This document shows positions 6,301 through 56,639 of a stretch of 64,000 nt of DNA, one piece after another (position 1 is the stretch's first letter; the number at the start of each line of letters is the position of its first letter). A model generated the notes under the pieces. The model did not search any database. It worked only from the letters and a program-made list of their open reading frames with translations, and was not told where the DNA came from. The position numbers were made by a program, and so were the translations under genes. Source of the DNA: Liolophura sinensis. Its lineage: Eukaryota > Mollusca > Polyplacophora > Chitonida > Chitonidae. The stretch is from NCBI RefSeq assembly GCF_032854445.1, contig NC_088297.1, positions 26,407,915-26,471,914 of the forward strand, read 5' to 3'.

Positions 6301-9300
6301 CGTCCACGTAGTGGAAGGCCGCGCTCGTCTGGCAAGGGAAGAACAAAGATGAATCGGGTAAGGAGATATGGGGAATATAGAGAGATCGTGCTCTGCATGG
6401 GTTATTTCAGTGGGAAGATATATGCACGTAAGGTTGAAGGAAATGTTGGATATAAATGTTGGATATTTTCCTGATGATTACGACAGATTAATATTCATAT
6501 TTTACTGGAAGAATTGATCGCTCAACTTATTGAAACATTAACACATTTAAAGCGTAGACACCTAAAACTTATTACAGAACCTACATCTTGATTTCTCGGC
6601 CTGGGCTGATAAACCAAACTTTGGAACATTATGTTATTTCAGTTTTCAACCTTATCCAGAGCAAAAAAATTTACTTTCAGCTATAAATGTCATAAGAAAT
6701 TATTATTACATGAATGCCTCCCATAAAAATATACAATACAGTGATGTTGCCGATCAAGGAATTTGGAGAATAATTAAACTTTGTTGGCTGTTCAATTTAC
6801 TCCATGGAAAATGTTAAGAACTGTATAAAATGGTTAGCTCACTTGGATAGCGTCGCCTTTGTTTTCAACCGTGACTTGTACACTGGTTTCCAAAGTGCCG
6901 TCACTGGCTCCCGTTGTACATATCAACTCAGTCGTCTTTGCCGAGGTAACCTCACAAACCACGCCCCCAATAGTGACTGAATTCTCACTCATCGTATTGC
7001 TGAGGATGATAACCGATACGAACGGTTCATCTACAGGATAACTTTAGCTGATAACGTTTTCGTTTTTTCTATCCACAGATTATATGATGAAACTCCGCCT
7101 GAACCAATTTCTTCTGATCAGTGTTATTTGTTCATTTTATTAGTTTCTAAAGACTACGAGAAGAATGTGAAATACGTTACAACTTTTATATAACAAGCAC
7201 AGTCCACTGTGAAATGACAGGACAGCGACATGTAATCCTTCTTATCATTTGGCAATCTGTTTGTGGACGTTTTTTATTTTTCCGTTTTCATATAAGTCTC
7301 TGACCGGCCCGAATAGCACAGTTGGTAGAGCGTCCGCTTCGGGACCGGTAGATCCAAGATCAATCCTTGATCGAGTCACACCAAAGACTTTAAAAGAGGA
7401 AGTTGTTCTTCCTCGCTTGGCGTTGGACCGGCCCGGATAGCACAGTTGGTAGAGCGTCCGCTTCGGGACCGGTAGATCCAGGATCAATCCTTGGTCGAGT
7501 CACACCTAAGACTTTAAAAGAGGAAGTTGTAACTTCCTCACTTGGCGTTCAGCATGAAGGGGATAGTGCAACGACTGGTTGACCCGTATCAGTATAATGG
7601 CTCGGGCGGGGCGGCTTACTTGCCTTCGGTAAGTCGTCTCAGTGAGGCAGCACTAGATAAAAGAGCGGTGGAAATCCGTCCTGCAACAAGGAGGCACATT
7701 ACACGTGCATGCACCCTAATGATTCCTTCGTCGTCATATGACTGAAAAATTGTTGAGTACGACGTTAAACCCCAAGCACTCACTCACTCATATAAGTCTC
7801 TGTCAACGAATATACCTACGGGAAATAATCAACGGCATCAAAACCGACGAAATAATAAAAGAAAATACGAGAATTTTAATCCGGCCTCCTATCAGTTTAC
7901 CTCAGTTAAGGTATAGGACTGACCTAAATCCTTGTCCGGCAATAGTTACCGACGTCCCCCCGGCGGTTCCCCCGCGTCCTGGTGTCACACCGTCGATGTT
8001 AGGGGTCAAACTGGGGTCAAATGTAAAACCATTCGCCAGAACGTCATCCACGTTGTTTACGGCTACAGTGACGTCACACATCTTCGATGACGTATCACCA
8101 TCTGTTGATGTTGCATAAATGGAATCTTATTAAACTCACAAGCTATACAGCGGATCAATAAATTAATAGATTTCCTGTATGTTCCAGAACCCAATTGTTT
8201 TACAATTTTTCCCAAACTATATGATTTACTTCCGTATATGTTTTGAGAAAATAAGAAATAACAAAAGCGACACATGTGCATTTCAAATACCCATCCTCCG
8301 TTGAAGAACACGAAGAGCATCATACCCAACAACAACAATATGAATGGATACAACACGGACAGCAAAAAATGAATGATACTTTTACAACGTGTTTGATAAC
8401 GATACGGAATAACGATGTTAGTAGCGGAACGTTGTGTATAATAACGAAGAAGTTATCTGTAAGCAATTGCCTTGTTCAGACACAGAGTCGGCAAATGACC
8501 ACACACACAACGAATAAAATCCGGCCTGTCCATAATTTACCATTTCCCCTACAGAGCCGCTCGTCGCATAGTCAAGTATTACACACTATTTGTACAAACA
8601 GCCTTGGACAAACTTACAGAGATAAGCTGGGACCTGACATTTGAGAGCTGAGGAAGTCTGGCTAGCTCCGTCCACCAGTGCGCATGTCTCGTTACAGATG
8701 CTTATAGTGGAGGTCACGGGGTCAAATCCAGCCCCGGATACAGTTACCTCCTGACCTCCGGCAAAACTTCCTGTCACAGGGAAGGAAAGCGTTATTTAGA
8801 TTTTGGGGTCCAAATACACAGACATGTAATAACTACGACCACAATGTAATAACTACGACGACAATGTAATAACCACGACTACAATGTAATAAGACCAACA
8901 GCTAGGTATATCGGTAATACCGAAAGTTACATAGATACAACTAATCGGTAATTGGTGAAGGCTAGTTCAGGCATGGCTGACTGATTAAGGGGGTTCCAAA
9001 GCAGAGCAAATCTTACTGACTATTTATTCATATTTAAGGCGACGAATTTGTTTACTTTTGTTGAACTTTTGGACCTCAGGACGAGATGAAGTTGACAGAT
9101 AAGAACTTTTTGAAACCAATTACCTGTAGCAGGTGAGATCGATGTCACTTCGATGGCGTACTTGAAGTTCTGATCATCATTGGAGTTGCCGAGTCCGACC
9201 ACATGCACAAGGACAGGGTAACTTCCAGCAGAATGAGCTCCAAGTGTGCACTGTAAGGGAGAGGTAAGAAGTGACTGTACACTCCACCTCGTCTATGGTG

Positions 9301-18300: not shown

Positions 18301-21207
18301 TTGACACATGATTTGCATTTTCGTATAAAGGAAGCGCAAACAACTATTGTCTGAAATTTCTCATCAGTCAGTTTTCTGTTTGATCGTTCCAGAGGACTAA
18401 GCAATTATGGTTCGTTTGATAAACGTCAAGTACATTCTGTCTTTTTGTTTTTCCTCAGATATATCGTTATAAAATCACAAATTAAAAGCCATATTTAGTA
18501 ATTTACAATGATATTTTACCGTGCCTTTTACGATTATACTCTTCTTACGATTGTATATTTCATTGTTTTTTACCTGTCCATCTTTCACTTTAAACACATG
18601 GAAATTGTTGCCGCACTCGTTCGGGGTCAATTCTATGGTATACGATGACCCTGATAACGTCACTGTTACGTCATTGATCATGTGATCTGAGGGCAACGCC
18701 TGGCGTCTTTTGGTCCACCCTTCATTCAGACCTACAGCGAAATGAATACAAACGGAGTGATGCTTCTGATGATATCAGTTGTACAAGTCAAAGCTAACGT
18801 TTTCTGTAACGAAAACCATATATTTGAACTAGGTGAAATATTAGTAATATCAGCCCCAAAGCATTGACATTTAAATGTCATAAGTAAAGGTCTAGGCGCC
18901 AAAACTGACATTCGTATACCCGTCATCGACCAATGACGTTCCGCGAGGCCAGTTCCGGCAGTCCACTCTTCATTCCACATAGTTTATCTTCAACCGGCGT
19001 AATATCTGTGGTATCCATTTTTAAGAATCATTGAGCAATACGCAGTAGACACATTAGTTTACAACTATAGCTTGGGACTGAAGTTTGGTCGCTGCCGATA
19101 GGATTTTAGCCTTTAAGGCCGTAAGTTGAAAACTAAACCCCGAGTTTCAGTTAACAAGTATCATGTACCTGCAGAGAAATGCAACCTTCGAAGAATGGCG
19201 ATTAACACCAACCAAAGCGAAATAAATATGTGTATGTCACGTCGCTATCAGAGGGGAAAATGCGTGATACAATTTTCAGAGTGTCTAGTTGAATCATTCA
19301 CAGTAGTTGTCCTGGCCGATGCGTATAACGACGACATACCTGTAAAGTCTGTGGCTGCACCGACTTATGCGCATGGCGACGACATACGTGTTAAGTCTGT
19401 GGTTGTACTGGCTGATGCGGATAACGACGACATACCTGTAAAGCCTGTGGTTGCACCGACTGCTGCTCATGGCGACGTCATACCTCTAAAGTCTGTGATT
19501 GCACCGGCTGATGCGTATAACGACGACATACATGTAAAGCCTGTGGTTTTCTTGACTGATGCGTATAACGATGACATACCTGTAAAGTATGTGGCTATCT
19601 TGACTGATGCGTATAACGACGACATACCTGTAAAGTCTGTGGTTATCTTGACTGATGCGTATGATGACGACACGCCTGTAAAGTCTGTGGTTGTACTGAC
19701 TGAGGGGCATGTCGACGATATACCTGTAAAGTATGTGGCTGTACTGATTGAGGGGCATGTCGTCGACATGCCTGTAAAGTCGGTGGTTGTTCCTACTGAT
19801 GGAAATAACGAGAACAAACCTGTAAAGTCTGTGGTTGTTTCCACCACTCCGATGTAGACACTGTCCACATAGACGTCCTGGTCGGTGTGTCTGGCTATGA
19901 CAGCCTTGTTGAGGAAGAACCTGGAGCCCCCAGTCACAACCTGGCCGATGAGCGCCATCATGTCCACGCAGACGTAACGCCAGCTACGATGATAACGATG
20001 ATAAATGTAACGTCAGCTACAGATACACAGATAGACAGGCGTAACGTCAGCTACAGATACACAGATAGACAGGCGTAACGTCAGCTACAAACCGAAAGAG
20101 AGGCGTAACGCCAGCTATGAACAAAGAGACAGGCGTAACACCAGCTACGAACACAAAGACTTAACGCCAGCTACAAACAGACAGGTAGACGTGACGCCAG
20201 CTACAGAGAGATAGAGACGCACCTCCAGCCACAAACAGTAAAGCCAGGTACAGAGAGATAGACAGACGTATCGTCAGCTACAAACAGAGAGACAGACGTA
20301 ACGCCAGCTAAAAACAGATAGACAGACGTAACGCCAGCTACAGACACAAAGATAGACAGACGTTACGCCAGTTACAAACAGGGAGGCAGACGTATCTCCA
20401 ACTACAAACAGAGAGACAGACGTAACGCCAGCTACAAATCCAGAGACAAATACAGGTATCACCAGCTAGAGGCACATCGATAGATGGACGTAACGCCAGC
20501 TATACACAGATAGAGACATAACGCTAACCACAAATAGAGAGACAGGAGTAACACCAGATACAAACACATAGGCAGACACACGTAACGCCAGCTATCAACA
20601 GAAAGACAGACGTAACGCCAGCTACAAGCAGAGAGACAGGCGTATATCCATAAACCAACAGAGAGACACACGTATCGTCGGCTACAAACAGAGAGGCAGA
20701 CGTAACGCCAGTTACAGACACAAAGGTAGACAGACACAAAGGTAGACAGACACAAAGATAGACAGACGCCAGCTACAAACAGAAAGACAGACTTAACTCC
20801 AGGCATAAACGGGGAGACAGGCGTAGCACCAGCTACATACACAAGGATAGGCAGACGTAACACCAGCTACAAACAGAGAGACAGACGTAACGCCAGCTAC
20901 AAACAGAGAGACAGACGTAACGCCAGCTACAAACATTCTCAGCCTCTTAAAACCTTGTCTGTTTCGCCAGATATCACTAGGTTTAGAGGGACTAGATGCC
21001 AAATTGCCGTACCTGTCTGTGGTCTTGATGTCCTCTACATCAAACCATCTCCCAACACTTCTTTCTTCTGACTCACTATCGGTGTACGTGTAATGTAGGT
21101 ACAGTTTGGACTGGATGCCGCCCAAGTATGCGAAACACACCTGCACACAGAATAAAGTCACAAATAGACATGTTATTTTTCTTATTTATTTAGTTAGGGT
21201 TAGGTAT

Positions 21208-21238: not shown

Positions 21239-24200
21239 CTTGATTAGTGTCTTCCTTGTACTCAAGAATGTTTCACCTAGAAGACAGTGGGAGGAAACCA
21301 GGCAGAGCCCGAGCGAATGTCATTTGACTGACCACATTCGCTGCCTGTGGCTTTTGTACAACTCTATACTGCCCATACACATGATGAACTTGTCATCAGC
21401 TTCTCTCCACTCTCAAAATTTGAATAAAATTAGCCTTTTTAACAAAAATAATTCCAAAATCTTCAGAAAAAAATTAAAATAGTATATGTTTTTGGTAAAA
21501 GAACTTTTTTCACAGGAAAATATTAACCAATATATATTTTATACCTCATATATTTCTACCTGAAAGAGAGAAAAGCAGCGATTTCTTTTTTCAGCCATAC
21601 TCAGCCATACTCAGCCATACTCAGCCTAACATTAGAATCTGGAAATTAGTGTATGCTGAGTTGTAGATAATCAGGGGGCCCTCCGTGGCTCAGTTGGTAA
21701 GCGCGCTAGCGCAGCGTAATGGCTCAGGAGTTTCTTACCAAGAAACTGTGAGTTCAAGTCCAGCTCATGCTGGCTTCCTCTCCGGCCGTGCGTGGGAAGG
21801 TCTGCCAGCAAGCTGCAGATGGTCGTGGGTTTCCCCCGGTGTCTGCCCGGTTTTCTACCACCATAATGCTGACCGCCACACTAATATTCTTGAGAACGAC
21901 GTAAAACACCAATCGAATAAATAAATAGATGGATAATCAGCATCTTAGTTACATCGTCCGCTTTGGTTGGAGATGTATTTTATATAGTTTACGGGTGTTG
22001 TGAGAATCGATATGACGTCACCAATATAAGGGTAGCTGTGAAATCTGCCCTGACCCAAACTTTATCCACGGGTCAAAAGCCACACGAACCATGCCTTAGG
22101 TAAGGAAACGTGTGTGAACACTGACTTAGTGTTGCAGAATGTTCCCTAATCGCGACTACAACTTACAGTTTTGTATTGTCCCAGATAAATCCCCGATTCC
22201 TCGAACGTTTGGTAAAGATAATTCGGATTTTTCCAGAAGGATTTCCCACAAAATGCACGTATGATGGTGCCTTCCTCCGGCTCATCGCTCTTCAGGATAC
22301 GGGAATGCGTAAGAGTCTCGTAACTCTCAAAGTATGCCGATCTCGCGGGATTCTCCACGGCACTGGGACAAACCTCCTTGAACATATCTGATACGGCGGA
22401 TTTCATCTGAAATCACAAATGAACAGCTAAACGTATAACGAAATAAACTGACAATAAATAAGGTCAATTCTTTAAAAAAATTTTAATTCCTAACCAGTGT
22501 TTCAAGCACGTCTGGGTCCAGTTTAACAAAGATGTCGTACATATACGGTAATTGCACCTATACGATAATAGTACGGTAATAACCACGTGCAAACCATAGT
22601 GCGACAAATGTACTATAAAAATGTCGTACTCCACTTTGTGAAACCGGGCCCTGTGTTATGGCGTGCGGATGCGCAGTGGGATTTGTATACATGTTCATAA
22701 AAATACATTGTATTTTTTGAGACCACCATTTATGTATAGCGATTGTCGCAGCCTTCGTGTACTCGGCTAACAGGTCTGTGAGTGACGTAGCATGCCGTCA
22801 TCTACCTGTGACTCGGACGCGTCAGCTGGGATAGGTGCAGAAAAGATGTCATCAATTTCCAGGCTGAAGTATTCTCGGCTGGGCACGCCTTTTGTGGTCT
22901 CCTGGACGGTAATCGCTAGGGTCTCACCCCGAACATTCGGGGCCGTTTTTGTCGTCATCAGCTCAACATCCCCTGCACAAACAGATAGGGAATGTCGTAA
23001 GTGAGGGTTAATTGTGACAAGGTGTGGACAGGGGGGTGCTAGAGATTTGCTTCTCTGACGGCACAGTTCCACTCAACATCTGACAATTTGGCTACTTGGA
23101 AATGGCCAACAATTTTGCAGACCCCTAAAAGATTCCAAACTTTAATTCTAACTTGCACAACTATAATCTGTTAAACCTTAGAAACAACCAAGTAATGTAA
23201 ACTCTCTCAAGATTTCTGCTTTATAAAATGTTATGAAAAATATGAACGAAATTAGAACGTTAACTGTCTGGAAATTTACCTGGACACAAACACTACATGA
23301 AACACAAACAAAACAATTACAAGCGAGGAACTTTATCTACGATGCTGAAGTTGTGGTGACACCGTAAATCACCTATGGCCATAAGGTGTGTCCCTCATCC
23401 ACATGTGTCACATGTCTTACCTAGTCCAGCTACAAACGTGACGGTGTATCGGTTACCCCCGGAGATGGAAGACTGTGTGACAGTCACACTGTCGGTCAGG
23501 CCCCCTGGTATGGCTAGGAGAGCCTCTGTGACTGTGCTGGCGTCAGCGTCACCTAACAGCGGAACTGTCGGGAGAGGATTAAACAGTGTAGGGGTCATGA
23601 CATGTAAGGGTATGACAAAACGAGAGTGTCACGTTACTCCTCTAGACACGGATTGGACATGATAAAACGCGAGTGTCAAGCTACTCCTCTAGACACGGCT
23701 TGTGCATGAGAAAACGAGAGTGTCACGTTACTCCTCTAGACACGGCTTGTGCATGAGAAAACGAGAGTGTCATGTTACTCCTCTAGACACGGCTTGTGTA
23801 TGACAAAACGAGAGTGTCACGTTACTCCTCTAGACACGGATTGGACATGATAAAACGCGAGTGTCAAGCTACTCCTCTAGACACGGCTTGTGCATGAGAA
23901 AACGAGAGTGTCACGTTACTCCTCTAGACACGGCTTGTGCATGAGAAAACGAGAGTGTCATGTTACTCCTCTAGACACGGCTTGTGCATTAGAAAACGAG
24001 AGTGTCATGTTACTCCTCTAGACACGGCTTGTGTATGGCAAAACGAGAGTGTTAAGTTACTCCTCTAGACACGGCTTGTGTATGACAAAACGAGAGTGTC
24101 ATGTTACTCCTCTAGACACGGCTTGTGTATGACAAAACGAGAGTGTTAAGTTACTCCTCTAGACACGGCTTGTGTATGACAAAACGAGAGTGTCATGTTA

Positions 24201-27200
24201 CTCCTCTAGACACGGCTTGTGTATGGCAAAACGAGAGTGTTAAGTTACTCCTCTAGACACGGCTTGTGTATGACAAAACGAGAGTGTCACGTTACTCCTC
24301 TAGACACGGCTTGTGTATGGCAAAACGAGAGTGTTAAGTTACTCCTCTAGACACGGCTTGTGTATGACAAAACGAGAGTGTCACGTTACTCCTCTAGACA
24401 CGGCTTGTGTATGACAAAACGAGAGTGTCATGTTACTCCTCTAGACACGGCTTGTGCATGAGAAAACGAGAGTGTCATGTTACTCCTCTAGACACGGCTT
24501 GTGTATGACAAAACGAGAGTGTCACGTTACTCCTCTAGACACGGCTTGTGTATGACAAAACGAGAGTGTCACGTTACTCCTCTAGACACGGCTTGTGTAT
24601 GACAAAACGAGAGTGTTAAGTTACTCCTCTAGACACGACTTGTGCATTAGAAAACGAGAGTGTCACGTTACTCCTCTAGACACGACTTGTGTATGACAAA
24701 ACGAGAGTGTTAAGTTACTCCTCTAGACACGGCTTGTGTATGACAAAACGAGAGTGTCACGTTACTCCTCTAGACACGGCTTGTGCATGAGAAAACGAGA
24801 GTGTCACGTTACTCCTCTAGACACGGCTTGTGTATGGCAAAACGAGAGTGTCACGTTACTCCTCTAGACACGGCTTGTGTATGACAAAACGAGAGTGTCA
24901 TGTTACTCCTCTAGACACGACTTGTGTATGGCAAAACGAGAGTGTCATGTTACTCCTCTAGACACGGCTTGTGTATGACAAAACGAGAGTGTTAAGTTAC
25001 TCCTCTAGACACGGCTTGTGTATGGCAAAACGAGAGTGTTAAGTTACTCCTCTAGACACGGCTTGTGTATGGCAAAACGAGAGTGTTAAGTTACTCCTCT
25101 AGACACGGCTTGTGCATGAGAAAACGAGAGTGTCACGTTACTCCTCTAGACACGGCTTGTGTATGACAAAACGAGAGTGTCACGTTACTCCTCTAGACAC
25201 GGCTTGTGTATGACAAAACGAGAGTGTCATGTTACTCCTCTAGACACGACTTGTGTATGACAAAACGAGAGTGTTAAGTTACTCCTCTAGACACGACTTG
25301 TGTAAAACTGTTGAACGATTTAAATACGTATCAAACTATTTAAACATGAAAGTCAATGCATCTGATGCTGTGAGAATATTAAGCCACGGCATGAAGCATT
25401 GCTAGTCAAGCCAAAACCAAGAACAGTTGGAGAAACAGGCTGAAAAAGCTAAAATGAATAGCATGACGATGCGTTCCGAGAATAAGGGGGTCATTGCATG
25501 TTTTCATCATCAGTTTAAGAATATAACCAAACATTTATCCAATCATCCTCAGCCGGGATCTAAAATATCAAAACTGTTATCTGGAATCGTCCAACAACCA
25601 AGATGAGCAAACTTACCTGTGTAAACGCCACTAATCCCCAACCTGTAGGTGGCCCCGTCCAGTTCACTCGCTGACCCCAGAACGTCCACCCTTTGGACCT
25701 CGGCTTTTCCAGACACAGCCGTGAAATCAGGCAACGTCAATGTCTGGCAAGCAAGGAAATGGTGAAATATTTGTTGTTTGGAATAAAGAATTCTTTACGC
25801 GTTTGGCATTCCATAACATTTATCTGCCAAGCTTGTCCATGATGTTACAACATTTCATGCTAAACTCATTAAAGTGTTGATTCATTGATTACCTGGTTGA
25901 CTGGTTGGTGTATGAAGACTTACCTGTATCTCCTTCTTTACCGTTGATCTGACGGCAATTCGCTGTTTTTCTGATTTTGCCGCCCCGGTCATTCCGCTGG
26001 TAAACTTGGTATTGAGGACGCATGCACCGACCTGTATAGGAGACTCGAAGGACGCCTCACCCACAAAGTCCAGGTAAAAACTGAGAATAAAACAACAGCA
26101 GTGTTCTTCACCATATCATATCTTGCATTGTTTTCTTTAGGACTTTAGGAAAATTAACTACATTATTAGGCGTATCTGATTGGCTAGTCATCATATTTTC
26201 TTTATCTTAAAGATATATATTCCAAATTGAAGAGAAAGAATGAGATTATTGAAAATGAAAACAATCCTTTTGCTGAAATTTTGGACAGTAAATCTTTTGA
26301 ACATACTGGGAGAGATTTTAGTAGTGACGCAATAAAGCCATAACGAGTTTGACTGTAATATGGGAGTGGAGACATAGAGACACATCTCAGAAGATGAAAG
26401 TATAAATAACCTGGCTCCTTCGTGAAGATTCTGTATAGAGGAGACACGGGAGCTGGACGAGGCGATCTCAGTCTGAAATGTAGAAGAGGAAACAAGACAT
26501 TTTAACGTCACATTGCAAACGCAGGAAACATCAAACTGTAATACAAAAAGAGTTTCACGTCTGTCTCAATTCTGTCATCCTTTGTGAGCATTTATTCTTA
26601 TTATTGGTCAGATTCACTATACAAGACAAATGGCACAGGACCAGTGATGTTACCATGATATCACAGCGACATCACTATGATATCGCAGTGATGTTACCAT
26701 GATATCCCAATAATATCACCTTCATAAATCATAGTGATGTCACCATGTCACCGGTGTTATCACAGTAATTTTCCACGTGATGTCACAGTGACTGATTACA
26801 CAGTGACATGGCCATAACATCAGTGATGTCACCATGATATTACAGTGACGTATCTATGATATCACAGTGACGTAACTGTGATATCACAGCGACATCACCA
26901 AGATATAGCAGTGGTGTCACCATTATATCACAGTGATATCGCCATCTTATCGCAATGAAGAGATCATAATATCTCAGTGATACCACCATGATGTCACAAT
27001 GTTATCACAGCAATGTATCATATGATGTCACAGTAAGTGATGTCATTGTGACGTCACTGTGATATCTCGGTGACATTACTGTGATATCATGGTGAGATCA
27101 CTATGCCACCATAACATCACAGCAATGTCACAATGATATCCCAGTAATGTCACAGTAACTTAATGTTTATAGCTATCACATCCGTTTCACAATACCACTG

Positions 27201-33200: not shown

Positions 33201-35314
33201 ACTCACGCTGGGGTGATGCACATTATCTGTAACTCAGTCGTGCCATCTTTGTGGATCTCACAGGGGTAGGACCTCGTCAGGGACACCAAATCGACTTTGT
33301 TGCCCACATGTTCGTTACCATCTCCGTGGTTGAACTCACTGGAGGCGAAATCTGATCCACAAAGATAAAACTTGTTAATTCTAACAGCTAAACAGAAAAA
33401 TAACTTAAACATCTTGGGGATGCCAATTATATTGCATTATTTATGTCAACCCAGTGATAAATAAAGGGCTGGAGAAACAGGGGAGATTGTTGTGGAATTA
33501 AATGCTTTCGTGGGATCAAACCCTTTCGGAACGGAAGTCGTGTTTCTTCTTGTGGTGTTCTTTGGTTGGTTTTGTTTCTATCGTAGTTTTGTGGCGGTTT
33601 TGTTAATGGGTTTCTTTTTTTTGTTGTGGTATTCTTGGTTTTGTTTGCTTTGTGTACTATTAATGTGGTACTGTTGTAGTGTTTCTCTTATGTTCCTTTT
33701 GTGGTGTTTTTGTTTGGTTTTCTGTTGGTGGCATTTTTGAGGTGGGATTCGTAGTGTGCTCTTGTTAGGATCTTGTAGTGTTTTTGGTTTGGTGTTCTTT
33801 CTGTGATATTTCTGTGGCAGTGTTTGTGAAGTAGTATCTTTGTCGTGTGTTTCTCTTGTCTTCTAGTTGTGGTGTTATTGGCACGTTTTCTTTCTGTGAA
33901 ATTTCTGTTGCAGTGTTTGTGAAGTAGTATCTTTGTCGTGTGTTTCTCTTGTCTTCTAGTTGTGATGTTATTGGCACGTTTTATTTCTGTGATATTTCTG
34001 CTGCAGTGTTTGTGATGTAGTATCTTCGTCGTGTGTTTCTTTTGTCTTCTAGTTGTGGTGTTATTGGCACGTTTTCTTTCTGTGATATTTCTGTTGCAGT
34101 GTTTGTGATGTAGTATCTTTGTCGTGTGTTTCTCTTGTCTTCTAGTTGTGGTTTTATTGGCACGTTTTCTTTCTGTGATATTTCTGTTGCAGTGTTTGTG
34201 AAGCAGTATCTTTGTCGTGTGTTTCTCTTGTCTTCTAGTTGTGGTGTTATTGGCACGTTTTCTTTCTGTGAAATTTCTGTTGCAGTGTTTGTGAAGCAGT
34301 ATCTTTGTCGTGTGTTTCTCTTGTCTTCTAGTTGTGGTGTTATTGGCACGTTTTCTTTCTGTGATATTTCTGTTGCAGTGTTTGTGATGTAGTATCTTTG
34401 TCGTGTGTTTCTCTTGTCTTCTAGTTGTGGTGTTATTGGCACGTTTTCTTTCTGTGAAATTTCTGTTGCAGTGTTTGTGAAGCAGTATCTTTGTCGTGTG
34501 TTTCTCTTGTCTTCTAGTTGTGGTGTTATTGGCACGTTTTCTTTATGTGATATTTCTGTTGCAGTGTTTGTGATGTAGTATCTTTGTCGTGTGTTTCTCT
34601 TGTCTTCTAGTTGTGGTGTTATTGGAACGTTTTCTTTCTGTGATATTTCTGTTGCAGTGTTTGTGAAGCAGTATCTTTGTCGTGTGTTTCTCTTGCCTTC
34701 TAGTTGTGTTGTTATTGACACGTTTTCTTCTTGTGATATTTCTGTGGCAGGGTTTGGGATGTGGTGTTTCCAATGTGGTTATTCACTTTTGATGTTAGTT
34801 GATGTTGGATATACATTGCTAACAGCTCAATTCAGCGTTTATGTTTATATGATACAAAATTATATATGATACATATTTATATGATATCAAAAGCCTGGTC
34901 CCTTTGCATTCTTTTACTGTGCTGGTATGCTAAATGCGATGACAACATACCATTTTGAGTAATCCTAGACCATTGACGTATAATAAATTGCAGTTAACAT
35001 AGCTGCATTTTTTGTGCCTAATTCTGCTTAAGCCATGGTGCTAGGGGGCGTGTAAATTGCTACTATTTATGCATTTACATGAACAGTTAGAATAAAACCC
35101 TGACTGAGGTAGATTGACAAGGGGCCGTATTTCACTGGTTGCTTGTGACCATTTGCAGCTATCCCACTGTCGTCGCTGCTCTGCTTTTACTCTCTCTGAT
35201 GAACGACATTTCTCAGTATATATTACTCACCACGGCCATGGATGGTAAGTCTGGTGGCGCCCCCTACCGACCCTTCTCTCGGCTCAATGTGCGTTATCCT
35301 CACATCACTGGCGT
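162..35314 (-). CDS. PKHD1L1: Fibrocystin-L ortholog (43 exons read; both ends incomplete)
   Basis: This is a giant type I membrane glycoprotein. The vertebrate protein coats hair-cell stereocilia and is related to the kidney ciliary protein fibrocystin and to the CEMIP/TMEM2 hyaluronan-binding family. The spliced minus-strand exons give about 2,980 codons. In order they encode TIG 1-3, PA14, a linker, TIG 4-7, a cupredoxin-like segment, TIG 8-14, a G8 domain, a parallel beta-helix (motifs GRYPVHFHLNGD and SLLNDDITPAAFW) and the start of a second G8. That order and length match the first two thirds of vertebrate fibrocystin-L. Exon boundaries were chosen from gt/ag sites, and every junction keeps phase. 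The signal peptide exon is not visible upstream of 35314. The second beta-helix, transmembrane helix and tail lie to the left of the window. Oddities are the frame breaks in exon 33 and the splice-site arrays around exon 20. Confidence 0.95.
369..1379. other. Intron 42, AT-rich
   Basis: I see no exon, repeat or RNA gene. No ttac/ctcac donor complement is followed by a plausible coding stretch. Confidence 0.6.
1380..1548 (-). CDS. PKHD1L1: PKHD1L1 exon 42: between helix 1 and second G8
   Basis: It encodes PSDFVVLSQRLQYLPDRFSF and AHGDWIFDSNQNLIRYL. The vertebrate protein has NGDWHLEANTSTLYYLVSG here. It is 56 codons + 1 nt; the donor is CTGG|gtacat. Confidence 0.93.
1899..3394 (-). CDS. PKHD1L1: PKHD1L1 exon 41: first parallel beta-helix in one large exon
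   Basis: The 1,496-nt exon encodes the right-handed beta-helix shared with CEMIP/TMEM2. Motifs are FSTQTCFQGRFGDEMGSDEF, GRYPVHFHLNGDMAGSYVRG, NRAVNIHGTHNVLVEH, GGAFFLEDGVETGNI, GGTHFGFWYRMHDHPDGPSF and NNTIHSQGWFGIWIFHDFFP. The acceptor at 3395 (gtttcag) rather than 3366 is supported by the conserved TQTCFQG segment. The frame is open throughout. The final residues are RFDFHE. Confidence 0.97.
3642..4010 (-). CDS. PKHD1L1: PKHD1L1 exon 40: G8 end and beta-helix entry
   Basis: It encodes VSTTWTRLASTANAGQNTIT, DWSVGDYIVIATTGDRHSQR and EVGLLTRNVVVRGSD, then CEAGFDTG. The donor ACACCG|gtgggt is chosen over a gt four bases on because it keeps phase with the next exon (GGC GAG). Confidence 0.95.
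4011..4826. other. Intron 39
   Basis: Nothing is recognised except a short run of diverged 20-bp units near 4740-4815 containing tcgatatcat and its variants. Confidence 0.6.
4827..4959 (-). CDS. PKHD1L1: PKHD1L1 exon 39: G8 domain
   Basis: It encodes VGTEDEPFQHKAIITLHGHL and CIAVREGVIDLHG, almost identical in pattern to the vertebrate stretch. The donor is CACG|gtgagt. Confidence 0.96.
5871..5987 (+). mobile_element. SINE family A, 5'-truncated copy
   Basis: It carries the shared core (gcggatggtcgtgggttttc) and tail (cttgagtatggcgtaaaaca, then ccaatcaaataaataa). The tRNA-like head is missing. It lies in the intron between exons 38 and 39. Confidence 0.85.
6001..6080 (-). CDS. PKHD1L1: PKHD1L1 exon 38: G8 domain
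   Basis: It encodes GKLIFDEKDVELQVEIILIT and DGGVLQ, the central glycine-marked strands of G8. The acceptor is ttttacag and the donor is ACAG|gtaagt. Confidence 0.96.
6172..6328 (-). CDS. PKHD1L1: PKHD1L1 exon 37: first G8 domain starts
   Basis: It encodes VDVWSSVFTWGGQSPPVAGD and VVVIQKGQTILLDTDTP. The W....W.......G..V.I..G pattern defines G8, shared with CEMIP and TMEM2. Confidence 0.96.
6843..6999 (-). CDS. PKHD1L1: PKHD1L1 exon 36: TIG 14
   Basis: It encodes NTMSENSVTIGGVVCEVTSA and TTELICTTGASDG. The acceptor atcctcag at 7000-7001 is chosen over tgtag at 7031 because only it keeps phase with exon 35 (AG+C gives Ser). Confidence 0.93.
7303..7787 (+). mobile_element. SINE family B composite with target-site duplication
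   Basis: A 126-bp tRNA-like head (A-box tagcacagttggtagagcg, B-box ggtcgagtc-like) is present twice. A full body follows, ending ttgttgagtacgacgttaaa and ccccaagcactcactcactc. A 15-bp direct repeat, tcatataagtctctg, flanks it at 7288-7302 and 7788-7802, so the head-duplicated element seems to have inserted as one unit. It lies in the intron between exons 35 and 36. Confidence 0.9.
7924..8101 (-). CDS. PKHD1L1: PKHD1L1 exon 35: TIG 13 end and TIG 14 start
   Basis: It encodes CDVTVAVNNVDDVLANGFTF and GGTSVTIAGQGF. The donor is TTTAG|gtcagt. A weaker downstream gt would read through a stop, so this site is chosen. Confidence 0.93.
8618..8770 (-). CDS. PKHD1L1: PKHD1L1 exon 34: TIG 13
   Basis: It encodes SFAGGQEVTVSGAGFDPVTS and ISICNETCALVDGAS, matching vertebrate SFGGGQTMTVTGTGFNPQNS and CGSECAI. 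The donor is CTCT|gtaagt. Confidence 0.95.
8826..8892. repeat. Short 21-bp tandem repeat
   Basis: About three units of aatgtaataactacgaccac and variants lie in the intron between exons 33 and 34. Confidence 0.75.
9124..10581 (-). CDS. PKHD1L1: PKHD1L1 exon 33: giant exon with TIG 8-12, several frame breaks
   Basis: The exon runs from ctag|GTGTGG to ACAG|gtaatt and covers five TIG domains (openings VSQISPVQGTGEDD, YVSDLSPVSGSMAGG, PTLTSTSPTQVD, LSGISPSSGSVHGG, PTITSITP). Coding similarity is continuous, but the frame changes near 10333, 9853, 9828, 9741, 9495, 9367 and 9250. Most look like one missing base, several in short homopolymers. The 9250 and 10333 sites look like losses of about 5 and 25 nt, judged from the fixed Cys-x11-Cys spacing. 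The net change is a multiple of three. Read errors or allele decay are both possible. The frame is not continuous as given. Confidence 0.8.
10582..11451. other. Intron 32, no recognised element
   Basis: Purine-rich near 10680-10745, otherwise ordinary AT-rich intron. I see no repeat or gene. Confidence 0.55.
11452..11628 (-). CDS. PKHD1L1: PKHD1L1 exon 32: cupredoxin-like segment, part 2
   Basis: It encodes VYEYTFTEIGVNSYWSGYVT and MMTLRGEVEVVPRTSH. The vertebrate equivalent is FSYQFTSPGIHYYSSGYVDE. The donor is TCCG|gtaagg. Confidence 0.93.
12001..12261 (-). mobile_element. SINE family A, near full length, with TSD
   Basis: On the minus strand it has a tRNA-like head (gctagcgcgcta region), the core with ctgcggattgtcg and the tail ending in an ATAAATAA run. 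A 13-bp duplication, cgctgaccaatga, flanks it at 11989-12001 and 12264-12276. It lies in the intron between exons 31 and 32. Confidence 0.92.
12477..12662 (-). CDS. PKHD1L1: PKHD1L1 exon 31: cupredoxin-like segment, part 1
   Basis: It encodes GTGFAWDQPAITVEIGDTVR, WEWSSDATLGLTYRVQRT and EYDGTGFNSGS. The pattern (VeiGDtVrWeW ... GFnSG) resembles a plastocyanin-like fold. The vertebrate protein has GYAWSPPVLNVSVGDTVAWH here. Copper ligands are not evident. Confidence 0.93.
12914..12949. repeat. Poly-C tract followed by poly-A
   Basis: About 14 consecutive C, then cacctccc and a run of A, just downstream of exon 30 on the coding strand (poly-G on the transcript). It is a possible G-rich structure close to a donor site. 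Confidence 0.7.
12963..13210 (-). CDS. PKHD1L1: PKHD1L1 exon 30: TIG 7
   Basis: It encodes SYVLEVTNLYPKRGSLFGGT, RLTITGRGFSTVANENDVMV and CTVESSTDVQIIC. It is strongly like the vertebrate YVLEVTSMFPQRGSLFGGT stretch. An alternative acceptor 15 nt inside (caccgtcag) also keeps phase, so the 5' edge is uncertain by five codons. Confidence 0.93.
13573..13768 (-). CDS. PKHD1L1: PKHD1L1 exon 29: TIG 6
   Basis: It encodes GVEITISGSGFGNTRLSEEA and HAPGSYPVRLKTDAGGYADT. This TIG lacks the cysteine pair. The donor is ACACG|gtttgt. Confidence 0.93.
13769..15126. other. Introns around exon 28, no recognised elements
   Basis: Apart from exon 28 (14370-14505) I see no repeat, SINE or RNA gene in these two introns. 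Confidence 0.5.
14370..14505 (-). CDS. PKHD1L1: PKHD1L1 exon 28: TIG 5 end and TIG 6 start
   Basis: It encodes STVDVVVTQDGNTLSSKSFT, then ATASITSVSPTTSAVQ. The donor is CAAG|gtacga. Confidence 0.95.
15127..15251 (-). CDS. PKHD1L1: PKHD1L1 exon 27: TIG 5
   Basis: It encodes GADLQITGHGFTSDAVVTVG and DCHVTSNTPALITCVTPKS, with the usual cysteine pair. The donor is TCG|gtaaat. Confidence 0.95.
15503..15781 (-). CDS. PKHD1L1: PKHD1L1 exon 26: TIG 4 body and start of TIG 5
   Basis: It contains GTTLIISGTKFS, VVIGGTSCTVQSATATSITC (Cys-x11-Cys) and the next opening VDSISPTTGSTEG. It is phased 2 nt + 92 codons + 1 nt. Confidence 0.95.
15971..16076 (-). CDS. PKHD1L1: PKHD1L1 exon 25: start of TIG 4
   Basis: It encodes VAAYINGIPTACDGSCDLEW (vertebrate VEVYVNGIPAKCSGDCGF) and TPTITSLTPAS, the TIG opening. 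The acceptor is acctttcag and the donor is TCAG|gtatgt. Confidence 0.95.
16533..16655 (-). CDS. PKHD1L1: PKHD1L1 exon 24: linker
   Basis: Exactly 41 codons, including SGIDVSIVVSTLQDGMLCYD and PIPAEFLRTVHDTPQ, equivalent to the vertebrate GDLLRTPSQQPQ stretch ahead of TIG 4. Confidence 0.92.
17173..17321 (-). CDS. PKHD1L1: PKHD1L1 exon 23: linker unit
   Basis: It encodes VKSTAEDLQAILQSIGATGS, NCANFDWIITWTGKGGDQP and LE. This matches the vertebrate ADLQFALQSLEGMG...C.GY.W.I.W unit. The donor is GAA|gtaagg. Confidence 0.92.
17564..17730. repeat. 27-bp minisatellite, about 6 copies
   Basis: Units such as gcagttaacacttggatatt followed by cagcggg repeat every 27 bp in the intron between exons 22 and 23. 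No similarity to either neighbouring exon edge was seen. Confidence 0.9.
18044..18188 (-). CDS. PKHD1L1: PKHD1L1 exon 22: linker
   Basis: It encodes VTSGSSSQSSLSAEYSYGGG and PPVTGQFDLTFRGKTKS. The vertebrate protein has PPLSGSFDI at this point. The donor is TCAG|gtacga. Confidence 0.9.
18574..18731 (-). CDS. PKHD1L1: PKHD1L1 exon 21: linker
   Basis: It encodes LNEGWTKRRQALPSDHMIND, a strand-rich segment (VTVTLSGSSYTIELTPNECG) and FHVFKVKDGQ. The acceptor is cgctgtag and the donor is ACAG|gtaaaa. Confidence 0.9.
19321..19848 (-). repeat. 48-bp tandem array copying exon 20's 5' splice site
   Basis: There are eleven units in perfect 48-bp register. The first unit contains the real exon end (ACAG|gtttgt at 19820). 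The others carry the same CAG followed by gtatgt or a variant at 48-bp steps down to 19340. Two units have gc in place of gt. The unit is 16 codons long, and the exon frame stays open through about eight units, to 19467. Confidence 0.93.
19820..19983 (-). CDS. PKHD1L1: PKHD1L1 exon 20: linker, flanked by splice-site arrays
   Basis: It encodes WRYVCVDMMALIGQVVTGGS and VYVDSVYIGVVETTTDFTG; the vertebrate counterpart has W.YTCIDL and YVDVVYIG. It is phased 1 nt + 54 codons + 1 nt with acceptor cgtag|C and donor ACAG|gtttgt. Both splice junctions are the first members of tandem arrays (19321-19848 and about 20001-20935). Confidence 0.9.
20001..20935 (-). repeat. About 30-bp tandem array copying exon 20's 3' splice site
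   Basis: On the minus strand each unit reads, approximately, tctctctgtttgtag|CTGGCGTTACG. The real junction of exon 20 shares 19 nt with the units (19969-19987 equals 20882-20900). About twenty units keep the AG followed by CTGG or a close variant, each with its own pyrimidine tract. The array lies entirely in the intron between exons 19 and 20. Confidence 0.9.
21013..21140 (-). CDS. PKHD1L1: PKHD1L1 exon 19: linker
   Basis: It encodes VCFAYLGGIQSKLYLHYTYT and RSVGRWFDVEDIKTTD. The donor is CAG|gtacgg. The reading frame happens to stay open past the donor into the 30-bp array, but phase with exon 20 fixes the end here. Confidence 0.9.
21192..21315 (-). mobile_element. SINE family A, truncated
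   Basis: A (tatt)n tail, then tgtactcaagaatgtttcac and the ggaggaaaccaggcagagcc core. The head half is absent. Confidence 0.8.
21590..21626. repeat. 11-bp direct repeat
   Basis: catactcagc is repeated in about three to four copies just upstream of a SINE A insertion. Confidence 0.7.
21675..21931 (+). mobile_element. SINE family A, full length, with TSD
   Basis: It begins ggccctccgtggctcagttg, carries a B-box-like gagttcaagtcc, and ends aaaacaccaatcgaataaat. A 9-bp duplication, gataatcag, flanks it at 21666-21674 and 21932-21940. The head resembles a tRNA with A and B boxes, but it is not a tRNA gene. Confidence 0.92.
22167..22406 (-). CDS. PKHD1L1: PKHD1L1 exon 18: linker with aromatic motif
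   Basis: Exactly 80 codons. It includes MFKEVCPSAVENPARSAYFE and TIIRAFCGKSFWKNP, matching the vertebrate stretch with CP, YFRDYE and AYCG.S..NP motifs. Confidence 0.93.
22806..22972 (-). CDS. PKHD1L1: PKHD1L1 exon 17: linker
   Basis: It encodes DVELMTTKTAPNVRGETLAI and FSLEIDDIFSAPIPADASES. The donor is CACAG|gtagat, and it joins exon 18 at a codon boundary. Confidence 0.9.
23421..23564 (-). CDS. PKHD1L1: PKHD1L1 exon 16: linker
   Basis: It encodes DADASTVTEALLAIPGGLTD and GGNRYTVTFVAGLG, resembling the repeated short alpha/beta units of the linker (STxxE...AL). The acceptor is tcccgacag. Confidence 0.9.
23612..25305. repeat. 47-bp minisatellite, about 36 copies
   Basis: The unit is approximately gcttgtgtatgacaaaacga then gagtgtcacgttactcctct and agacacg. 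It fills most of the intron between exons 15 and 16. Variant sites (tgtcacg, tgtcatg, tgttaag; tatgac, tatggc, catgag) alternate. A four-unit block starting gattggacatgataaaacgc recurs at 23651 and 23839, a 188-bp higher-order period. Confidence 0.95.
25617..25743 (-). CDS. PKHD1L1: PKHD1L1 exon 15: linker
   Basis: It encodes TLTLPDFTAVSGKAEVQRVD and YRLGISGVYT. It sits between PA14 and TIG 4 in the linker of fibrocystin-L. The donor is ACAG|gtaagt. Confidence 0.9.
25924..26080 (-). CDS. PKHD1L1: PKHD1L1 exon 14: PA14 end
   Basis: It encodes FYLDFVGEASFESPIQVGAC, the final PA14 strand, then a basic stretch (VRSTVKKEIQ). It is phased 1 nt + 52 codons. Confidence 0.92.
26411..26472 (-). CDS. 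PKHD1L1: PKHD1L1 exon 13: PA14 middle
   Basis: A 62-nt exon encoding TEIASSSSRVSSIQNLHEGA. The acceptor is catttcag and the donor is CCAG|gttatt. Confidence 0.88.
26640..27165. repeat. Degenerate gatatcacagtgatgtcacc array
   Basis: About 0.5 kb of diverged units of roughly 20 bp mixing gatatc, gtgatgtcac and tgtcacc, many self-complementary, in the intron between exons 12 and 13. Confidence 0.85.
27249..27493 (-). CDS. PKHD1L1: PKHD1L1 exon 12: PA14 domain, first part
   Basis: It opens with NRGVDFEVWPNPGVSDL and contains IPAGMTVRWRSVFVAPSNNS and YQFMIAPSSATSKLYLNEN. This is the PA14 beta-barrel pattern (F.A...Y.F.I....S..L.ln). PA14 domains are often glycan-binding; fibrocystin-L has one at this position. 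Confidence 0.93.
27751..27837 (-). CDS. PKHD1L1: PKHD1L1 exon 11: TIG 3 end
   Basis: It encodes GEACDVISTTSTEITCVIPP, the Cys-x11-Cys pattern that closes TIG domains in this protein. The donor is TCCG|gtaagt. Confidence 0.92.
27898..27947. repeat. 11-bp gagtatagggt repeat, 4-5 copies
   Basis: Perfect short tandem repeat in the intron between exons 10 and 11. Confidence 0.9.
28205..28293 (-). repeat. 45-bp partial duplication of exon 10's 3' edge
   Basis: The exon end encoding FDETNSPAMVTVGG, together with the first donor bases, is followed 45 bp later by a near copy (FDETITPAMVTV). The second copy lies in the intron and remains in frame, but lacks the GGAG|gtaaat donor. Confidence 0.85.
28249..28359 (-). 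CDS. PKHD1L1: PKHD1L1 exon 10: TIG 3
   Basis: It encodes ITSISPSTVSKAGGTTLTI and the following strand (PAMVTVGG). The last 35 nt of the exon are copied once more just inside the intron, described separately. Confidence 0.92.
28887..28957 (-). CDS. PKHD1L1: PKHD1L1 exon 9: linker to TIG 3
   Basis: It encodes SRADPSILRVSGDETIHTF and the residues before TIG 3. The acceptor is gtcttcag and the donor is GCTG|gtaagg. Confidence 0.88.
29390..29432 (-). CDS. PKHD1L1: PKHD1L1 exon 8: 43-nt micro-exon
   Basis: It encodes NQNISYIVEGKYG. It is very short and easily missed, but phase (2 nt + 13 codons + 2 nt) and strong sites (ttttccag, CG|gtaaga) fix it between exons 7 and 9. Confidence 0.85.
29884..29957 (-). 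CDS. PKHD1L1: PKHD1L1 exon 7: TIG 2 end
   Basis: It encodes FLVKLNNEGSNYGFFTC and the residues after it. The acceptor is atttcgcag and the donor is TGTGT|gtaagt. Confidence 0.88.
30148..30204 (-). CDS. PKHD1L1: PKHD1L1 exon 6: TIG 2
   Basis: A 57-nt exon encoding VYVGGYECKLLEDPEDDK, the TIG strand with its first conserved cysteine. The donor is AAGAG|gttagt. Confidence 0.88.
30300..30680. repeat. Degenerate gtgattcagagagttaga-type array
   Basis: About a dozen diverged units of 25-35 bp based on cgtgaatca/gtgattca and agttaga, in the intron between exons 5 and 6. Confidence 0.7.
30722..30815 (-). CDS. PKHD1L1: PKHD1L1 exon 5: TIG 2
   Basis: It encodes TTVTVKGRLFSDRRGS and a serine-rich loop. 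Its 2 nt + 30 codons + 2 nt join exon 4 (GAT, D) and exon 6 (AGG, R). Confidence 0.9.
31248..31305 (-). CDS. PKHD1L1: PKHD1L1 exon 4: start of TIG 2
   Basis: A 58-nt exon encoding YTPTITNIDPQSGPP, the typical TIG opening strand. The acceptor is cctccag and the donor is CCAG|gtaaat. Confidence 0.9.
31535..32010 (+). pseudogene. Retroelement reverse transcriptase fragment (decayed)
   Basis: Opposite in strand to the host gene and inside the intron between exons 3 and 4. Visible motifs include APLLADLDLLSYEYDYTQKL, SNPHLVRSLLFTKRYIDDYL (the YIDD box corresponds to the RT catalytic YxDD) and SYLDVHLYKDQKGFHSRLYD. The frame is interrupted by a stop after IYPPF near 31839. It may be Penelope-like, though the clade cannot be set from this fragment. 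Confidence 0.75.
32190..32410 (+). mobile_element. SINE family A, missing 5' end of head and A-rich tail
   Basis: It reads gcgcgctagcgcagcgtaac, gtgagttcaagtccaagtca, tgcggatggtcgtgggtgtc and attcttgagtacagcgtaaa, then stops. It sits about 180 bp downstream of the RT fragment. Confidence 0.88.
32591..32696 (-). CDS. PKHD1L1: PKHD1L1 exon 3: TIG 1 end and Cys loop
   Basis: It encodes YYIKVKVDGE followed by a cysteine-bearing loop (NENHCNYWRHPNC). The vertebrate protein has a comparable Cys insert here. It runs from ctcag|A to TCG|gtaaga, 1 nt + 35 codons. Confidence 0.92.
33207..33351 (-). CDS. PKHD1L1: PKHD1L1 exon 2: rest of TIG 1
   Basis: It continues TIG 1 (DFASSEFNHGDGNE, then SYPCEIHKDGTTELQIMC) with the paired cysteines typical of these domains. 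The donor is CCAGC|gtgagt and the phase joins exon 3 as A-RMVEDDYY. Confidence 0.92.
33795..34755. repeat. 93-bp minisatellite, about 10 copies, open on the minus strand
   Basis: In the intron between the first two exons seen. The unit contains tttgtcgtgtgtttctcttg and ttctagttgtggtgttattg. 93 bp is 31 codons, and the minus strand is open for 246 codons of a charged repeat (NTRQRYYFTNTATEISQKEN and the rest). I see no splice or start context making it a real exon. Confidence 0.92.
35231..35314 (-). CDS. PKHD1L1: PKHD1L1 exon 1 of those seen: start of TIG 1
   Basis: It encodes the beginning of the first IPT/TIG domain (GGATRLTIHGR). The acceptor is tttccag and the donor is G|gtgagt; the length is 2 nt + 27 codons + 1 nt. 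Because it starts with a split codon and has no Met, a preceding signal-peptide exon must exist, but I could not find it. Confidence 0.9.
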
Positions 35315-42925: not shown

Positions 42926-43179
42926 CCCGATGGTAACCGCTATTCACTGGCTTACGGGACAAAGAAACCCCTATGACATGGATAATGAGAGCAATGTTTA
43001 CCTCGATGGTAAGCGGTGGTACCTTGTGCTCCGGGATCTACAGGCGTGGGCTTAGCACACCTTGTCCAGTCTTGACCTCGGCATTCTGGTGGACAAAGGC
43101 CGCCTTGTTTAGCGAGTGGTCAAGTAGCTCTGTTTGATCTTACCGCTATAAATTGCCGTATATACATATAGCACACCAT

Positions 43180-44412
43180 GTCTTGTCCTGTAAACCACTG
43201 TTATTATGGTGAGCTGGCTCCATGACGTATAATACACCATGTCTTCTCATGTAAACCACCGTTATTATGGTGAGCTGGCTTCATGACATATAATACACCA
43301 TGTCTTCTTCTCTAAACCACCGTTAAAATGGTGAGCTGGCTTTATGACATATAATACACCATGTCTTCTTCTGTAAACCACGGTTATTATGGTGAGCTGA
43401 CTTCATGACATATAATACACCATGTCTTCTGTAAACCGCCGTTATTATGGTGAGCTGACTACATGACATATAATACACCATGTCTTCTGTAAACCGCCGT
43501 TATTATGGTGAGCTGACTACATGACATATAATACACCATGTCTTCTGTAAACCGCCGTTATTATGGTGAGCTGGCTCCATGACATATAATACACGTCTTC
43601 TGTAAACCGCCGTTATTATGATGAGATGACTTCATGACATATGAAACACCATGTCTTCTTCTCTAAACCACGGTTATTATGGTGAGCTGACCTCATGACA
43701 TATAATACACGTCTTCTGTAAACCGCCGTTATTATGGTGAGATGACTTCATGACATATAAAACACCATGTCTTCTTCTGTAAACCACCGTTATTATGGTG
43801 AGCTGACTTCATGACATATAATACACCATGTCTTCTTCTGTAAACCACGGTTATTATGGTGAGCTGGCTTCATGACATATAATACACCATGTCTTCTGTA
43901 AACCACGGTTATTATGGTGAGCTGACTTCATGACATATAATACACCATGTCTTCTTCTGTAAACCACGGTTATTATGGTGAGCTGGCTTCATGACATATA
44001 ATACACCATGTCTTCTGTAAACCACGGTTATTATGGTGAGCTGGCTTCATGACATATAATACACCATGTCTTCTGTAAACCGCCGTTATTATGGTGAGCT
44101 GACTTCATGACATATAATACACCATGTCTTCTTCTGTAAACCACCGTTATTATGGTGAGCTGACTTCATGACATATAATACACCATATCTTCTCCTGTAA
44201 ACCACCGTTATTATGGTGAGCTGGCTTCATGACATATAATACACCATGTCTTCTCTTGTAAACCACGGTTATTATGGTGAGCTGGCTTCATGACATATAA
44301 TACACCATGTCTTCTGTAAACCACGGTTATTATGGTGAGCTGACCTCATGACATATAATACACCATGTCTTCTGTAAACCACCGTTATTATGGTGAGCTG
44401 ACTTCATGACAA
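43180..44412. repeat. 58/61-bp satellite, about 20 copies
   Basis: The unit is accatgtcttctgtaaaccg then ccgttattatggtgagctga and cttcatgacatataatac; copies with an extra ctt are 61 bp. The array is homogeneous. Confidence 0.95.
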
Positions 44413-45551
44413 TAATTTTAATCATGTCATGAAGGTGCTTACGTCTTTAAGGCTTTATCAAATTTGTGCTGTGCCTTGGGATGGTTATACGTGGGATTTC
44501 ATATACATGCATTTAAGACAAAAACCTACATCTTGAAATTAAAAACTGTGGCTATTTGAACGCCTGTTGGTGTAAAATAAATCAATTATCAGGCGTCTTG
44601 TATATTTCCTTTACAAAACAAAACACTTCGTAATTCAATTTTCTAAAACCTTCTTAATTTGTTAATTTATTGGAAAGGGCCAATGTCTAGTTTAACTTAC
44701 CCTAATGCGACGTAACTTTCGAATAACAGATATGAAGAAAAGAAGGTTAAACAAGGTTTTGTGAAAGTTGATCTTGGCCTGCAAATGGATGAAATATATG
44801 AGAAGTTGTGTTTGTTGTTTTGCCCAACTTCAGCGACATGCGTTTGGAATGACACATGTGATGAATAATGACGGTCAACCATCCTGCCATCATGAGCTAC
44901 TGTATTTTTTTGGACATGTCCATATTTTAAAAAAAGTGCTGTACCATTCTGATAGCAAATGTAGAATGCAGTAATGAGTCTGATTTTCCCACCAATCCTG
45001 TCGCAGAACAATCAAAACTTGCCATTTGTACACATGTTGAGTACTCGTTTGTGCCACATATATTCTGTTTACATTTGATGTAGGACATCTTCGTATTTAG
45101 CTCAATTTGGTCTTGACATTTAAAACATGGGTTTGATTTCTTTGTATAATGGTTTCCATACATGCAATATTTTTAACAAAGTGTCACAGCCAAGCAGATA
45201 TACATGTAGCTCAGTTCTTGGGAGTGCCGCATCCATAAATAATCCATAGGTCATCAATGGGTCATGACGCCCATTCCTTCGCGAATCTGATCTGGGTTTT
45301 GCTTATCAGAGTATTGTGTAGAGAAAAGACCTCTCTCGCGCAGTTTACGTGCGGTATATATCTCTATATGCATCGGTATTTATATCTGTTATTTCAAGAT
45401 GATATATTTTTATCAATTATTATGATACTTTATTGAAAGTTCATGGTATCAGAAAGGGTAGCCTCCCATCAAAATTGCCAATTGGTTTGTACCTGTAGCT
45501 GTCACAAAGCTCAAGGCGGAAAAAAACTCATTAATGTCCACTGTCGTTTAG

Positions 45552-49205: not shown

Positions 49206-49345
49206 AGTGTCTGTGGGCCTTGTGCCTGTGGACCAGTGTCTGTGGGCTTGTGTCTGTGGACCAGTGACTGTGGGTCTTGTGCCTCTCGACCTATGTCCGT
49301 CGGGTTTTTTTTTTGCCTGTGGGGTTTTGTCTTTGGGGTTGTGTC
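46612..49345. repeat. 14-bp gtgggcttgtgtct minisatellite
   Basis: About 190 diverged units of gtgggcttgtgtct. Because the unit has no stop on either strand and is 14 bp, long open frames appear in several frames: His/Thr/Pro/Gln-rich on the minus strand (PTDTSPQTQAHRHK period) and Cys/Trp/Leu-rich on the plus strand. These are not credible genes. Confidence 0.93.
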
Positions 49346-56527: not shown

Positions 56528-56639
56528 CTGAAATGTAACAATTTTGAGAGCACATTTAAAAAACTTCTTAGTAAATACATGTATTTTTTACAATACTGTG
56601 CTGATAATGCCTGGCAGACCGATGATGCCATATCAAACA

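What the first reader, a model, noticed from the sequence alone, without database searches (positions are those of the whole stretch)
19984..20935. The 3' splice site of the same exon is amplified in the upstream intron
About 0.95 kb of 30-bp units fills the intron between exons 19 and 20. On the transcript strand each unit is a pyrimidine tract, then gtag|CTGGCGTTACGTCTG. The real exon 20 start shares 19 nt (19969-19987) with the most regular units (20882-20900). About twenty units retain an AG in acceptor context, so the spliceosome meets a long run of decoy acceptors before the real one.
Basis: partly seen in the sequence, partly recalled or inferred. Interest (0 to 1): 0.85.

Follow-up and report, generated by a model that had tools for sequence, protein, structure and literature searches.

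The report
Tandem-copied splice sites flanking an exon
In what looks like a mollusc gene, short repeat arrays have copied both ends of one exon many times into the neighbouring introns; this is a known kind of repeat, best described in lancelets, and it is probably tolerated rather than useful.

Summary
About 90% of intron 19 (19984-21012, minus strand) is an array of 31 units of about 30 bp, each copying the 3' splice site and the first 15 nt of exon 20. Of the 31 units, 22 keep AG, and 19 of those 22 score above the real acceptor in a generic, recalled matrix. The other end of exon 20 is amplified too: a 48-bp array carries its last 19 nt with the donor.

This fits 'mirages', boundary-spanning minisatellites reported in amphioxus, and resembles two human VNTRs. 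The genome looks molluscan. Junction copies occur at 4 of 137 sampled myosin and dynein exon edges, against 0 of 137 reversed-flank controls, and at 2 of 78 edges of this gene, both on exon 20.

Most likely this is minisatellite growth across junctions, tolerated because the exon-proximal sites still work. All 22 decoy acceptors predict a premature stop; seven of ten decoy donors keep the frame open. No RNA was available, so decoy use is untested.

The parts
21013..21140 (-). Exon 19 (128 nt), ends in GACAG before GTACGG
   Evidence: Splice signals and frame joining to exons 20 and 21
20936..21012 (-). Non-repeated 5' part of intron 19, with the donor
   Evidence: Between exon 19 and the array found by TRF
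20007..20935 (-). About 30-bp array; with the degenerate last unit down to 19984 it makes 31 decoy units, each a pyrimidine-rich stretch, (usually) AG, then a copy of the first 15 nt of exon 20
   Evidence: TRF, unit alignment, 22 of 31 with AG
19984..20084 (-). Three exon-proximal units beginning CTGAC; possible branch site in the last one (20012-20016), 26 nt before the true AG, with no AG between
   Evidence: Sequence; branch-site role is inferred and its consensus recalled
19820..19983 (-). Exon 20 (164 nt); its first 15 nt and last 19 nt are the parts copied in the two arrays
19306..19838 (-). 48-bp array: last 19 nt of exon 20, the donor, and ten further donor copies in intron 20 (eight GT, two GC)
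   Evidence: TRF, unit alignment, site list; no other match in the genome
18574..18731 (-). Exon 21 (158 nt)
   Evidence: Gene-model script and frame

Best explanation
Exon 20 of a fibrocystin-L-like gene is flanked by two boundary-spanning minisatellites of the kind called mirages. Each probably began as a short tandem duplication across a splice junction and grew into the intron by slippage or unequal exchange, so every copy carries splice signals plus a few exon bases. Splicing most likely still uses the exon-proximal sites (acceptor before 19983, donor after 19820). A branch site in the non-repeated part of intron 19 would now lie more than 0.95 kb from the exon, so the one in use is expected near the exon, perhaps in the last unit (CTGAC). 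Decoy acceptors, if used, bring a stop codon, so leakage would be non-productive. The arrays are probably near-neutral passengers with at most a small cost. Shown: anatomy, copies, reading frames, other cases in this genome. Inferred: growth mechanism, branch site, site choice, neutrality.
For: Copies span both junctions of exon 20. The 48-bp array has no other match in the genome and the 30-bp array only four weak partial ones, so both look locally made. Junction copies at 4 of 137 sampled exon edges, 0 of 137 with reversed flanks, 0 of 137 with exon-interior words at the same threshold. In the myosin case L025 the copied exon end encodes residues that align with solved myosins, and in the dynein case L060 using the exon-proximal donor gives a protein that aligns without a gap to DNAH5; there the exon is the likely source. 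All 22 AG-bearing decoys give a stop. Amphioxus mirages are reported not to disturb regular splicing.
Against: No RNA. 19 of 22 AG-bearing decoys and 7 of 10 decoy donors score above the real sites in the generic matrix, and nothing measured here explains why they would lose. For exon 20 itself no homologue was found, so the direction exon to intron rests on analogy. Human ABCA7 shows that such an array can change splicing. Two amplified junctions on one exon are unexpected if cases are independent (1 in 77 given two among 78 edges).
Confidence: 0.7

Rival explanations
1. Functional decoys: the acceptor array diverts or slows splicing and so tunes the amount of productive transcript, the rest being degraded.
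For: 22 of 31 units keep AG, and 0 of 22 give an open frame; 19 of 22 outscore the real acceptor. In human ABCA7, VNTR length correlates with skipping of the next exon.
Against: 9 of 31 units have lost AG. Mirages in amphioxus are reported not to interfere with regular splicing. No test of function was possible.
Confidence: 0.12
2. In-frame extension: the donor array gives alternative exon 20 ends, adding multiples of 16 residues to the protein.
For: The frame stays open for the first seven of ten decoy donors, adding 16 to 112 residues; my gene-model script itself ran the exon on to 19628.
Against: Differences from the consensus in ten units fall 27, 25 and 17 on codon positions 1, 2 and 3, no third-position excess. 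Two of the seven sites are GC and the last three give a stop.
Confidence: 0.08
3. Reverse direction: the arrays were in the introns first, and exon 20 took its edges from their last units.
For: No homologue shows that the copied residues of exon 20 are old.
Against: In L025 and L060 the copied exon ends encode conserved residues, so the exon came first there. It would have to happen at both ends of exon 20.
Confidence: 0.07
4. Assembly artefact: the arrays are errors of the assembly.
For: Tandem arrays are hard to assemble in general (established knowledge); a mitochondrial contig in this assembly looks concatenated.
Against: Most units differ from each other by substitutions and indels, unlike simple assembly duplication, and similar structures recur at independent loci.
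Confidence: 0.03

Closest known systems
Amphioxus 'mirages' (Adh3; globins BflGb6 and BflGb9; troponin C; PGBD5), passages of PMC3087553 and PMC3902484
   Same: Minisatellite-like tandem repeats spanning exon-intron boundaries, on the acceptor or the donor side, many copies keeping AG or GT; Adh3 units given as 10-72 bp.
   Different: Another animal group and gene; here both ends of the same exon, with 31 and 10 further copies. Length variation and splicing were examined there and could not be here.
Human CBS 31-bp VNTR, c.1444_1467+7(16_21), passages of PMC2630376
   Same: By its name the unit runs from 24 exonic into 7 intronic bases and is repeated 16-21 times, so each copy holds a donor region.
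   Different: Donor side only, one locus, known to vary between people. Its splicing effects are recalled (Lievers 2001), not seen here.
Human ABCA7 intron 18 VNTR, passages of PMC5954066
   Same: 25-bp units beginning with the exon 18 donor GT; a decoy donor one unit down is used at about 2%.
   Different: The VNTR starts at the GT and carries no exon bases; it varies from about 12 to 427 units and longer alleles go with exon 19 skipping.
Intron gain by tandem genomic duplication (PMC4974935, seen only as a search listing; discussed in PMC3087553)
   Same: Tandem duplication involving splice signals.
   Different: Here existing introns seem to be lengthened; no new intron is shown.

Membership tests
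Mirage (boundary-spanning minisatellite) | Tandem repeat whose unit includes both exon and intron bases of a real junction | tested here: met
   Both arrays; the junctions are predicted from signals and frame, not from RNA
Mirage (boundary-spanning minisatellite) | Many units keep AG or GT splice signals | tested here: met
   22 of 31 AG; 8 of 10 decoy donors GT, 2 GC
Mirage (boundary-spanning minisatellite) | Array is local to the gene rather than a dispersed repeat | tested here: met
   48-bp array matches only itself; 30-bp array has four other partial matches at 67-75%; the search skips simple repeats and very common words
Mirage (boundary-spanning minisatellite) | Length instability between alleles or cells | not testable with these tools
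   One assembly only
Mirage (boundary-spanning minisatellite) | Regular splicing in spite of the repeats | not testable with these tools
   No RNA
Mirage (boundary-spanning minisatellite) | Found in cephalochordates (the reported range in the passages seen) | tested here: not met
   Eight PF14830 haemocyanin domains in tandem and no GFP-family match (whose control rang nowhere) point to a mollusc; the taxon is not part of the definition as I use it
Fibrocystin-L (PKHD1L1)-like gene | IPT/TIG domains, G8 domain and beta-helix region | tested here: met
   TIG, G8 and CEMIP beta-helix matches in predicted exons; that this make-up defines PKHD1L1 is recalled, and orthology was not tested
Fibrocystin-L (PKHD1L1)-like gene | Exons 19-21 themselves match a known family | tested here: not met
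   No Pfam match and only chance-level PDB hits

The most novel reading that the evidence does not exclude
The paired arrays act together as a splicing buffer or switch for exon 20: acceptor decoys give non-productive extensions and the first donor decoys give in-frame ones, so array length sets dose and isoforms of a large protein and varies between individuals.
Probability: 0.06. Interest if true: 0.8.

Novelty: new member of a known kind. Interest (0 to 1): 0.42.

Why it matters
If right, boundary-spanning minisatellites are not a lancelet oddity: in this probably molluscan genome a few per cent of sampled exon edges carry them, and one exon carries them at both ends. That is natural test material for how the spliceosome picks one site among near-identical neighbours, and for how introns grow.

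Tried and rejected
Amphioxus as the source: considered because of the mirages, and rejected on the haemocyanin, COX1 and GFP searches; the GFP search is weak, since its control rang nowhere. A dispersed satellite: rejected for the 48-bp array, unlikely for the 30-bp array. Coding constraint on the 48-bp array: no sign. The CTGAC of the three exon-proximal units as a selected branch site: only suggestive, because two of those units are identical 34-mers and so probably a recent copy. A homologue for exon 20: none found in Pfam, PDB or elsewhere in the genome.

Dropped or corrected rows: began exon 19 one base off, and its frame results are replaced; its codon-position count does not use exon 19. 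In the edge survey 21 of 158 edges had no acceptable site and were dropped, and two edges with a single copy (L045, L084) were not counted; an earlier pass on 55 loci gave 3 of 96. The surveyed loci are the best-scoring matches, not random ones. Only the intron word 20-40 nt beyond the junction was also repeated at 3 of 137 edges, as expected where arrays exist. The 78 window edges come from my script's model and some may be wrong; the exon 19 acceptor, one base off, was redone and has no copies. L031 and L017 have arrays near an exon but without a clear junction copy. Array edges lie inside the exon at 4 of 215 junctions, and are about 2.5 times denser within 90 nt of a junction than beyond 150 nt; this was not corrected for intron length or neighbouring exons, so I give it little weight.

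Full report
Observation. On the minus strand, intron 19 (21012-19984, 1029 nt) holds a 30-bp period array at 20007-20935. Aligned to the unit CTGGCGTTACGTCTGTCTCTCTGTTTGTAG it gives 31 decoy units before the exon copy. The 15 nt after each AG equal or resemble the first 15 nt of exon 20. 22 of 31 decoy units keep AG; with a generic, recalled matrix 19 of those 22 score above the real acceptor.

The other side. Exon 20 ends ...CCACAGACTTTACAG|GTTTGT. A 48-bp array at 19306-19838 takes in its last 19 nt, the donor and ten further donor copies. Eight of the ten have GT, two GC, and 7 of 10 score above the real donor. So both junctions of one exon are amplified outward.

Gene. Predicted exons of this gene match the IPT/TIG, G8 and CEMIP beta-helix families, the make-up I recall for fibrocystin-L (PKHD1L1). 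Exons 19-21 join in one open frame but match no Pfam family and give only chance-level PDB hits. A search of the genome with this stretch at E up to 10 returned only this gene's own exons.

Organism. The genome has 609 Mb in 632 contigs. Eight haemocyanin beta-sandwich domains (PF14830) lie in tandem on contig C8; that this arrangement is molluscan is recalled. COX1 is open under the invertebrate mitochondrial code. No GFP-family match was found, but that search's control rang nowhere. I take it to be a mollusc and not a lancelet.

Local origin. The 48-bp array matches only itself in the genome. The 935-bp acceptor array matches itself and four partial stretches at 67-75% identity.

How common. 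I took 79 loci around the best matches to myosin head, dynein AAA_6 and dynein DHC_N2: 30 of 81, 25 of 90 and 24 of 86 matches. For 137 of 158 exon edges an acceptable splice site was found. At 4 of 137 (3 of 66 donors, 1 of 71 acceptors) the 20-mer across the junction had two or more copies with at most 4 mismatches in 1.5 kb of flank; reversed flanks gave 0 of 137, and exon-interior words 0 of 137 at that threshold (1 of 137 with a single copy). The four are L025 and L033 (myosin donors), L060 (dynein donor) and L075 (dynein acceptor). In this gene 2 of 78 edges pass, both on exon 20, with 0 of 78 for reversed flanks. Given two among 78 edges, the chance that they share an exon is 1 in 77, a rough figure from one gene.

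Direction. In L025 the copied exon end encodes residues that align with solved myosins. In L060, joining at the exon-proximal donor gives a protein that aligns without a gap to DNAH5; I made the join, so this shows that the proximal donor yields the conserved protein, not that others are never used. In both, the exon is the likely source. In L075 the PDB alignment begins at residue 8, so its first residues are unverified. L033 rests on its family match and was not compared with solved proteins. For exon 20 the direction is by analogy.

Consequences. Joining exon 19 to each of the 22 AG-bearing decoys gives no open frame (0 of 22; 7 are in frame by length). The first seven of ten decoy donors stay open and add 16 to 112 residues; the last three give a stop. 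Differences from the consensus in ten 48-bp units fall 27, 25 and 17 on codon positions 1, 2 and 3. Exon 20 is 164 nt, so skipping it would shift the frame.

How it probably works. The non-repeated part of intron 19 ends more than 0.95 kb before the exon, so the branch site in use should lie near the exon. The last unit reads CTGAC, then 26 nt without AG, then the true AG; CTGAC fits the branch consensus as I recall it. Two further units upstream have the same layout. I infer that each unit could act as a small acceptor module and that the last one is used. Why better-scoring copies upstream would lose is not explained by anything measured here.

What is known. Amphioxus mirages are this kind of structure, on either side of an exon, and their authors report that they do not seem to interfere with regular splicing (PMC3087553, passages; PMC3902484, passages). 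The Adh3 paper is not held. Two human VNTRs involve a donor: CBS (PMC2630376, passages) and ABCA7, where one-unit retention is about 2% and next-exon skipping rises with length (PMC5954066, passages). A search for mollusc cases listed two papers: the PGBD5 lancelet paper and a Conus intron paper whose passages concern simple repeats. Searches for boundary repeats in general listed no mollusc mirage that I recognised from titles and abstract starts. Papers outside this library were not searched.

Verdict. A real, well-formed example of a known kind in what looks like a new animal group, with a first rough rate for this genome and the unusual feature that one exon has it at both ends. Function is untested; passengers are the likelier reading.

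Noticed in passing
23610-25304; 33795-34756; 43164-44416; 46618-49281; 56618-59872: Other long tandem arrays in the window (47-bp x 36, 93-bp x 10, 61-bp x 21, 14-bp x 189, and a complex 59/126-bp array of 3.2 kb). The 47-bp array stops 46 nt before the exon at 23564.
   Followed up: partly
L031, 707-1491 and 1678-2254: A myosin exon with a 21-bp x 38 array on one side and a 41-bp x 14 array on the other, both stopping just short of the exon, with no clear junction copy.
   Followed up: partly
L025, L033, L060, L075: Further junction-spanning arrays in myosin and dynein genes of the same genome.
   Followed up: partly
G000 contig C99: Seven COX1 matches, mostly about 15.5 kb apart, suggest a concatenated mitochondrial genome in one contig, an assembly feature.
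   Followed up: no
7302-7549: Two copies of a 124-bp unit that looks like a tRNA-derived SINE (label recalled); a similar stretch is in the intron of L033.
   Followed up: no
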